Translations under genes and position numbers: made by a program
Notes under the pieces: model-generated
Seen by the model: the letters and a program-made list of their open reading frames with translations, nothing else
Databases searched by the model: none
What the model was told of the DNA's origin: nothing
Part shown: positions 41,600 to 42,079 of the stretch, piece by piece
How positions within the stretch are numbered: position 1 is the stretch's first letter
Layout: every line of letters begins with the position of its first letter
NCBI RefSeq assembly: GCF_000005505.3
Contig: NC_016134.3
Span: 27,355,584 to 27,419,583, forward strand
Direction: 5' to 3'
Source of the DNA: Brachypodium distachyon
Taxonomy: Eukaryota > Streptophyta > Magnoliopsida > Poales > Poaceae
DNA length: 64,000 nt

Positions 41600-42079
41600 A
41601 TGGCCGCTCCTTGTGCAAACGTTCGTGTCCTCATCCTCCTCGCCATCGCCTTTACCGTTGCCTCGGTGCCGGCGGCGATGGCCCGACCGGTTCACAAGGG
41701 CAAAGATCCGATACACAACGATGGCCCTCCTGCACCCGGACATACGGCGAAGTCCTTGAAGTCCGAAGTTCCCAGCGGCGAGAACCCGGTGCACAACGGC
41801 TCTCCTTCTCCTCCTCATGAGATCAGCTACCCCGTTAAGTCCGAACTTCCCAGCGGCAAGAACCCGGTGCACAACGGCTCTCCCTCTCCTCCTCATGAGA
41901 TCAGCTACCCCGTCAAGTCCGATGTTCCCAGCGGCGAGAACCCGGTGCCTAACCTTTATCCTCCTCCGTCGTACCTGTCCACTCCGATTGGAATTACCCT
42001 GATAAGGGTCCGTGCTCCCCCTCCTCCGACCGGCAATACCTTTGTACATGAAGCCATGCCCCCTTCTCATCATAGCTAA
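41600..42079 (+). CDS. Secreted precursor with four to five CLE-like peptide motifs
   Basis: 159 codons, single exon. Residues 1-28 form a signal peptide (VRVLILLAIAFTVASV core, cut likely after A-M-A). CLE-like 12-mers then follow: RPVHKGKDPIHN (29-40), SEVPSGENPVHN (55-66), SELPSGKNPVHN (81-92), SDVPSGENPVPN (107-118) and a degenerate PPPPTGNTFVHE (140-151). These keep Pro4, Gly6, Pro9 and mostly His11-Asn12 of the CLE consensus (compare TDIF HEVPSGPNPISN). Motifs 2 to 4 are exactly 26 residues apart, with linker GSPSPPHEISYPVK: a 78-bp tandem repeat. CLE peptides are cut out, modified and perceived outside the cell by LRR receptor kinases; multi-CLE precursors are known in some plants. The start chosen is the first ATG after the leader. 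Oddities: motif position 1 is Ser, not Arg, in motifs 2 to 4, and Glu or Lys replaces Pro7. Confidence 0.8.
   Translation: MAAPCANVRVLILLAIAFTVASVPAAMARPVHKGKDPIHNDGPPAPGHTAKSLKSEVPSGENPVHNGSPSPPHEISYPVKSELPSGKNPVHNGSPSPPHEISYPVKSDVPSGENPVPNLYPPPSYLSTPIGITLIRVRAPPPPTGNTFVHEAMPPSHHS

What the first reader, a model, noticed from the sequence alone, without database searches (positions are those of the whole stretch)
41600..42079. Multi-CLE peptide precursor with a 26-residue tandem unit
The protein has a signal peptide and then four clear CLE-like 12-mers plus a fifth worn one. Three motifs recur every 26 residues with linker GSPSPPHEISYPVK. Most plant CLE genes encode a single C-terminal motif. 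The motifs here carry Ser or Asp at positions 1-2 and Glu or Lys at position 7, where Arg1 and Pro7 are usual. The first motif (RPVHKGKDPIHN) keeps Arg1 and resembles the CLE45 type (RRVRRGSDPIHN). One gene may thus release several different ligands, or these may be a divergent peptide class.
Basis: partly seen in the sequence, partly recalled or inferred. Interest (0 to 1): 0.88.

Follow-up and report, generated by a model that had tools for sequence, protein, structure and literature searches.

The report
Chimeric multi-CLE peptide gene in grass
This is a small grass gene whose secreted protein carries several copies of a CLE-type plant hormone motif; it belongs to a known rice-type gene group, but its copies carry a charged residue where the usual hormone has proline, and the gene looks assembled from two relatives on another chromosome.

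Summary
Window 41600-42079 (+) is a 159-aa ORF with a signal peptide, four CLE-like 12-mers, a 78-nt tandem unit and a 41-residue tail. These four are the only 12-mers in six frames of the 64 kb that reach 5 bits against a matrix of published CLEs. Motifs 1 and 2 reach the low end of real CLEs; motifs 3 and 4 fall below it.

It is not a new peptide class. Profiles link it to Os05g0356500, named OsCLE504, listed among rice multi-CLE genes (PMC12677920).

Its 5' part matches a six-motif gene and its 3' part a one-motif gene, 30 kb apart on another contig, with a sharp join at motif 4; dS is 0.139 and 0.133 for the two parts. (2) Residue 7 is Pro in OsCLE504, Gln in Oryza meyeriana, Glu in two of three Leersia motifs, and Glu, Lys or Ser in Brachypodium. 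In this genome G(E/K)NP(V/I/M)HN is encoded at 7 places, all in three genes of this family.

Most likely a young CLE precursor under mild constraint, working mainly through motifs 1 and 2. Expression, processing and receptor are untested.

The parts
41196..41599 (+). 5' flank/promoter shared with the six-motif paralogue L008 (C3:26.927 Mb); TATATATA at 41497-41504, about 96 nt before the ATG
   Evidence: blastn 41196-41970 to L008, 77%; alignment
41600..42079 (+). 159-aa multi-CLE precursor ORF
   Evidence: indels in frame: 4 of 4 in the 5' part versus L008, 2 of 2 in the tail versus L011
41600..41683 (+). signal peptide (residues 1-28), predicted cleavage AMA|R
   Evidence: hydropathy; cleavage site by the -3/-1 rule (recalled), no SignalP run
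41684..41719 (+). CLE motif 1 RPVHKGKDPIHN, directly after the predicted signal peptide
   Evidence: PWM 20.1 bits; same 12 residues in L008
41762..41797 (+). CLE motif 2 SEVPSGENPVHN
   Evidence: PWM 20.7 bits
41798..41839 (+). linker GSPSPPHEISYPVK, copy 1
41840..41875 (+). CLE motif 3 SELPSGKNPVHN (Lys7)
   Evidence: PWM 13.2 bits, below the known CLE range
41876..41917 (+). linker GSPSPPHEISYPVK, copy 2
41918..41953 (+). CLE motif 4 SDVPSGENPVPN (Pro11 in place of His11)
   Evidence: PWM 7.2 bits, below the known CLE range
41759..41948 (+). 78-nt tandem repeat, 2.4 copies
   Evidence: TRF, 93% matches
41947..41963 (+). chimera junction between L008-like 5' part and L011-like 3' part
   Evidence: informative sites 270:2 for L008 up to 41947, 153:14 for L011 after it
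41954..42076 (+). 41-residue tail shared with the one-motif paralogue L011
42017..42052 (+). possible worn fifth motif PPPPTGNTFVHE
   Evidence: not above 0 by the PWM; similar element in relatives
42077..43913 (+). 3' flank shared in patches with that of L011 (about 75-85% for most patches), broken by a repeat common in the genome; AATAAA at 42155-42160

Best explanation
A Brachypodium member of the grass OsCLE504-like multi-CLE genes: a young chimeric duplicate made from two genes of a cluster on another chromosome. Proposed working: the precursor enters the secretory pathway. Signal peptidase cuts at AMA|R, so motif 1 starts at the new N-terminus. Apoplastic proteases free one or more 12-mers from the proline-rich linkers. 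The peptides bind a CLV1/BAM/PXY-type LRR receptor kinase. Pro4 of motifs 2-4 could be hydroxylated, but with Glu or Lys at position 7 the peptides cannot carry a Hyp7 arabinose chain. Motifs 1 and 2 are the likely working ligands; motifs 3 and 4 look worn. Shown: ORF, motifs, likeness to a named CLE, chimerism, rate contrast. Inferred: secretion, processing, modification, receptor, activity.
For: The four motifs outscore everything else in the window. OsCLE504 found by profile at E 5e-17, by BLASTP with the window protein (E 1e-6 for that single comparison, motifs 2-3 in register), and by a profile holding no Oryza sequence (98% probability). Paralogues L008 (six motifs) and L011 (one) in the genome. 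Sharp junction. Nonsynonymous change slower than 5' flank change (18.5 of 256.5 sites, tested as 18 of 256, against 57 of 345; p = 0.0004); indels in frame; dN/dS 0.54 for the 5' part. Motif 1 identical in L008.
Against: dN/dS of 0.54 and 0.62 is weak constraint, and part of it may predate the duplication. Motifs 1 and 2 score below the 5th percentile of known CLEs, motifs 3 and 4 outside their range. No expression, peptide or receptor data. No Pfam or NCBIfam match. CLE motifs are usually C-terminal; here a 41-residue tail follows. Orthology with OsCLE504 was not tested by tree or synteny.
Confidence: 0.7

Rival explanations
1. A decaying duplicate: the chimera is transcribed little or not at all and is on its way to a pseudogene; L008 on the other chromosome does the work.
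For: Pro11 in motif 4 and Lys7 in motif 3, while L008 keeps four SGENPVHN motifs; dN/dS 0.54 and 0.62; retroelement domains in 5 of the 9 window frames that I gave to Pfam; one cluster copy (L009) already has a stop before its signal-peptide stretch.
Against: ORF intact, indels in frame, nonsynonymous rate well below flank rate; about 400 bp of 5' flank kept.
Confidence: 0.3
2. Only motif 1 is a ligand; the 26-aa array is spacer, much as was speculated for the first domain of wheat TaCLE26 (PMC6747155, passages).
For: Motif 1 follows the predicted signal peptide directly, keeps Arg1 and is identical in L008; L011 has its single 12-mer in the same place.
Against: The shared element among relatives is the VPSGxxP[VI]HN type, not motif 1; OsCLE504 has two of those and no full motif at the first place.
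Confidence: 0.2
3. The Glu7 peptides act as antagonists or weak agonists of Pro7 ligands.
For: Residue 7 is Pro, Gln or Glu in relatives whose motifs otherwise mostly agree (exceptions: Ser8 in Leersia, Gln11 in P0003, and single changes in L008, L011 and the window gene); a charged residue 7 is absent from the 50 training motifs (44 Pro, 6 Ser).
Against: No functional data at all.
Confidence: 0.12
4. Not a signal: a proline-rich secreted wall protein with chance likeness to CLE.
For: 30 Pro in the 131-residue mature part; no curated family match; UniRef labels the related O. meyeriana protein 'Dirigent protein'.
Against: Motif scores and likeness to a gene named CLE in rice.
Confidence: 0.05

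Closest known systems
OsCLE504 (Os05g0356500, Oryza sativa), P0006
   Same: Precursor with two motifs HDVPSGPNPIHN 29 residues apart, in register with window motifs 2 and 3
   Different: His1 and Pro7 in rice; Ser1 and Glu/Lys7 here; no full first motif in rice; no 41-residue tail
Oryza meyeriana E2562_018462 (P0005) and Leersia perrieri A0A0D9WFH8 (P0008)
   Same: Two and three motifs; Gln7 in both O. meyeriana motifs, Glu7 in two of three Leersia motifs
   Different: His1; Ser8 in the two Leersia Glu7 motifs; the third Leersia motif is canonical, RLVPTGPNPIHH
Multi-CLE genes: CLE75/CLE76 (rice), CLE30/31 and TaCLE26/36 (wheat), ZmCLE14, GmCLE37, MtCLE14, PvTDIFL3
   Same: Several CLE motifs in one precursor (PMC2254619, PMC6747155, PMC12677920, PMC4526924, PMC8496505; passages seen)
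   Different: The 18 motifs printed in the PMC2254619 table (rice CLE75/76, wheat CLE30/31, Medicago CLE68) all have Pro7; I saw no sequences of the others. CLE68 was later read as single-motif MtCLV3 (PMC4526924)
CLE45 (RRVRRGSDPIHN)
   Same: Motif 1 shares Arg1, Val3, Gly6 and DPIHN
   Different: CLE45 has Arg2, Arg4, Arg5 and Ser7; here Pro2, His4, Lys5 and Lys7

Membership tests
CLE peptide precursors | N-terminal signal peptide | tested here: met
   Hydropathy peak 3.0 at residues 10-21, AMA|R; no SignalP run
CLE peptide precursors | 12-mer matching the CLE consensus | tested here: met
   Motifs 1 and 2 (20.1, 20.7 bits) lie above the minimum of known CLEs (19.1) though below their 5th percentile (21.7); motifs 3 and 4 (13.2, 7.2) lie below the range
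CLE peptide precursors | Motif near the C-terminus (usual; multi-CLE genes are accepted exceptions in PMC2254619) | tested here: not met
   Motif 1 is N-terminal and a 41-residue tail follows motif 4
CLE peptide precursors | Length 60-120 aa (criterion in PMC2254619; the multi-CLE proteins there are 175-250 aa) | tested here: not met
   159 aa
CLE peptide precursors | Pro7 (usual, not universal: 44 of 50 distinct training motifs) | tested here: not met
   Lys, Glu, Lys, Glu in motifs 1-4
CLE peptide precursors | Cysteine-poor, basic precursor | tested here: met
   1 Cys, pI 8.0; the part after the signal peptide is near neutral, 7.3
CLE peptide precursors | Release of an active peptide, receptor binding | not testable with these tools
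   No peptide, assay or expression data
OsCLE504-like grass multi-CLE genes | Two or more VPSGxNP[IV]HN-type motifs in register with rice | tested here: met
   26- against 29-residue spacing; position 3 is Leu in motif 3
OsCLE504-like grass multi-CLE genes | Orthology by tree or synteny with rice chromosome 5 | not tested
   The cluster lies on C3 (59,130,575 bp; recalled as Bd2, which carries rice-5-like blocks); no rice genome was at hand
TDIF (HEVPSGPNPISN) | His1, Pro7, Ser11 | tested here: not met
   Array motifs have Ser1, Glu/Lys7, and His11 or Pro11

The most novel reading that the evidence does not exclude
In an OsCLE504-like lineage of grasses the Pro7 that can carry the hydroxyproline arabinose chain was exchanged with Gln and Glu, giving tandem CLE ligands that work without, or against, this modification; recombination inside a motif then made a new ligand set at the window locus. 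One-base steps between Pro, Gln and Glu codons are possible from the GAG codons seen here; the Oryza codons were not seen.
Probability: 0.22. Interest if true: 0.65.

Novelty: new variant of a known kind. Interest (0 to 1): 0.42.

Why it matters
Little is known about how multi-CLE precursors are processed; passages of PMC6747155 and PMC8496505 say so. This gene and its relatives offer a natural series: one, two, three, four and six motifs, and Pro, Gln or Glu at position 7. Together these could test whether motif number sets dose and whether the Hyp7 modification is needed. The chimera also shows how recombination at a peptide repeat can reshape a hormone precursor.

Tried and rejected
Single-sequence protein search found the window protein itself and one distant protein, E 0.024; the other relatives needed profiles, in which about 8,000 capped candidates were scored. 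Pfam and NCBIfam gave no match for the window protein; L008 has a sub-cutoff match to a pilus-binding domain (23.8 of 27 bits), taken as chance. A weak hit at C3:37.578 Mb (L007/L012; E 5e-4, 38%) showed no CLE-like string by the regular expression and was set aside. Own-genome searches with P0005 and P0004 gave the family again; 4 of the 7 matches lie at Pro7 sites with E 0.01 to 0.2. P0007 and P0009 have no intact motif.

Rejected: that the window gene is the ancestral form and L008 and L011 are each half-lost versions. P0004 has the start and the tail of L011 in one protein, and the L008 3' part is far more diverged from the window than its 5' part. It cannot be fully excluded. The bacterial promoter scan is irrelevant to a plant gene. 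The open antisense frame 41585-42091 also exists over L008 and is taken as a composition effect.

Weak points: dN/dS rests on few changes; motif against linker p = 0.09. Fisher tests treat sites as independent and round fractional counts. The 5'-side informative-site count is inflated because L011 lacks most of that part. The profile held the O. meyeriana protein, which helps the rice E-value; searches do not use it. Patterns need exact uninterrupted codons, and I did not check that the Pro7 sites are genes; Asp7, Arg7, Gln7 and Ser7 were not searched.

Literature: open-access full text only. No paper held any of the ten motif strings searched (four and six terms); no paper held 'multiple CLE domains' together with Brachypodium; one search listed 5 papers, of which I looked only into PMC6747155. 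Goad 2017 and Kinoshita 2007 were seen only as citations, so this gene may be listed there.

Full report
WHAT IS THERE. The ORF at 41600-42079 reads 159 residues: signal peptide (1-28), motif RPVHKGKDPIHN (29-40), motifs SEVPSGENPVHN, SELPSGKNPVHN and SDVPSGENPVPN starting at 55, 81 and 107, and a 41-residue tail. The repeat is 78 nt. A TATA-like stretch (41497-41504) and an AATAAA (42155-42160) frame it; the first has a counterpart in L008, the second in L011 and L008.

IS IT MORE THAN CHANCE. A matrix from published CLE motifs (50 distinct 12-mers, from PMC4776436 and PMC5538625) ranks these four first to fourth among all stop-free 12-mers in six frames of the window; no other reaches 5 bits. 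Motifs 2 (20.7) and 1 (20.1) are above the lowest left-one-out score of known CLEs (19.1) but below their 5th percentile (21.7). Motif 3 (13.2) and motif 4 (7.2) fall within what 20 random windows gave (best 14.3) and are accepted because they are repeats of motif 2.

FAMILY. Direct search found the protein itself and P0002 at E 0.024. A profile of the window gene, L008, L009, L011 and P0002 added P0003, P0004 and an Oryza meyeriana protein, P0005, which UniRef labels 'Dirigent protein'. A second profile with these returned 10 proteins, five of them its own members; the five new ones include P0006, Os05g0356500, which UniRef names OsCLE504 (E 5e-17), and P0008 of Leersia perrieri (E 2e-8); P0010 is a fragment at E 1.8. 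The window protein aligns with OsCLE504 with motifs 2 and 3 in register, and the first profile, which holds no Oryza sequence, aligns with it at 98% probability. OsCLE504 is among the genes set aside for multiple CLE domains in PMC12677920 (passages). So this is a known kind of gene. Orthology was not tested.

POSITION 7. In the relatives the residue is Pro (OsCLE504, both motifs), Gln (O. meyeriana, both), Glu (Leersia two of three motifs, the third Pro; L009, P0002, P0003, P0004, one motif each; L008 four of five array motifs, the fifth Ser), Ser in the single motif of L011, and Glu/Lys/Glu in the three array motifs of the window gene; the first motif of the window gene and of L008 has Lys. 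In the whole genome the coding pattern G[E/K]NP[V/I/M]HN occurs 7 times: four in L008, one in L009, two in the window gene, with 0 hits for the reversed control. The Pro7 pattern GP[N/D]P[L/I/M/V/F]H[N/H] occurs 19 times on five contigs, with 1 control hit. Ser7 occurs in 6 of 50 training motifs, so loss of Pro7 alone does not exclude a CLE; a charged residue is the unusual part.

CHIMERA. On C3 three relatives lie within about 30 kb on the minus strand: L008 (26.927 Mb, six motifs), L009 (26.936 Mb, stop before the signal-peptide stretch, probably a pseudogene) and L011 (26.957 Mb, one motif RKVPSRSNPIHN directly after the predicted signal peptide). Window 41196-41970 matches L008 at 77%; 41939-42258 matches L011 at 85%, and patches to 43913 match the L011 3' flank. 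Informative sites run 270:2 for L008 up to 41947 and 153:14 for L011 after it; the switch is complete by 41963, at the end of motif 4. dS is 0.139 for the 5' part and 0.133 for the tail, so both halves left their sources at about the same time, very roughly 10 million years at a recalled rate of 6.5e-9. Taking 5' sequence from the downstream gene and 3' sequence from the upstream one is what the duplication product of an unequal crossover would give (inference); how the copy reached C5 is unknown.

CONSTRAINT. Against L008: dN/dS 0.54 for the 5' part, 0.37 in motifs, 0.73 in linkers, 0.49 in the signal peptide; tail against L011 0.62. Nonsynonymous change is slower than 5' flank change (18.5 of 256.5 against 57 of 345 sites, p = 0.0004), but motif against linker is not significant (p = 0.09). 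Indels in the CDS are multiples of three: 4 of 4 against L008 in the 5' part and 2 of 2 against L011 in the tail. This supports a translated gene under mild constraint, part of which may predate the duplication. Motifs 3 and 4 differ at residues 7 and 11 from the SGENPVHN form that L008 keeps in four motifs.

MECHANISM. See best explanation. Motif 1 directly behind the predicted signal-peptide cut, shared by L008 and L011, would let signal peptidase make its N-terminus, an unusual arrangement for a CLE (inference). Precedents are mixed: multi-motif PvTDIFL3 genes from switchgrass affected Arabidopsis growth but without amplification (PMC8496505, passages), and for wheat TaCLE26 the first motif was speculated to be the only functional one (PMC6747155, passages). 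CLE peptides typically carry hydroxyproline or arabinosylated hydroxyproline (PMC10904329, passages); that the arabinose chain sits on residue 7 is recalled.

VERDICT. A real gene, correctly seen; not a new peptide class; a chimeric, position-7-variant member of a known kind of grass multi-CLE gene.

Noticed in passing
L009 3068-3283 (-), C3:26.9365 Mb: Relative with HDVPSGENPIHN whose frame has a stop just before the signal-peptide stretch; probably a pseudogene of the cluster.
   Followed up: partly
L011 4132-4353 (-): One-motif precursor in which the CLE 12-mer (RKVPSRSNPIHN, 27.8 bits) follows the predicted signal peptide at once and is trailed by a tail: an N-terminal rather than C-terminal CLE layout.
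   Followed up: partly
41538-41572: (GCAC)n microsatellite, 8.8 copies, in the presumed 5' UTR, not present as such a run in L008; could vary among accessions.
   Followed up: no
17225-19699 (-): Retroelement coding pieces: integrase, RNase H, reverse transcriptase (Pfam).
   Followed up: no
35826-37232 (-) and 11176-11913 (+): Frames with the Transposase_28 domain, 'putative gypsy type transposon'.
   Followed up: no
44859-45713 (+): F-box protein frame, possibly of the FBD/LRR type. Only 9 of the 122 window frames of 100 aa or more were given to Pfam in that call.
   Followed up: no
L012 4505-5060, C3:37.578 Mb: 84-nt tandem repeat in a 248-aa open frame, weakly like the window protein (E 5e-4); no CLE-like string by the expression.
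   Followed up: no
P0007, P0009 (JGI proteins on short contigs): Proteins with the MKQM start and a similar tail (cut short in P0009) but no intact CLE motif: the motif can be lost while the frame persists.
   Followed up: no
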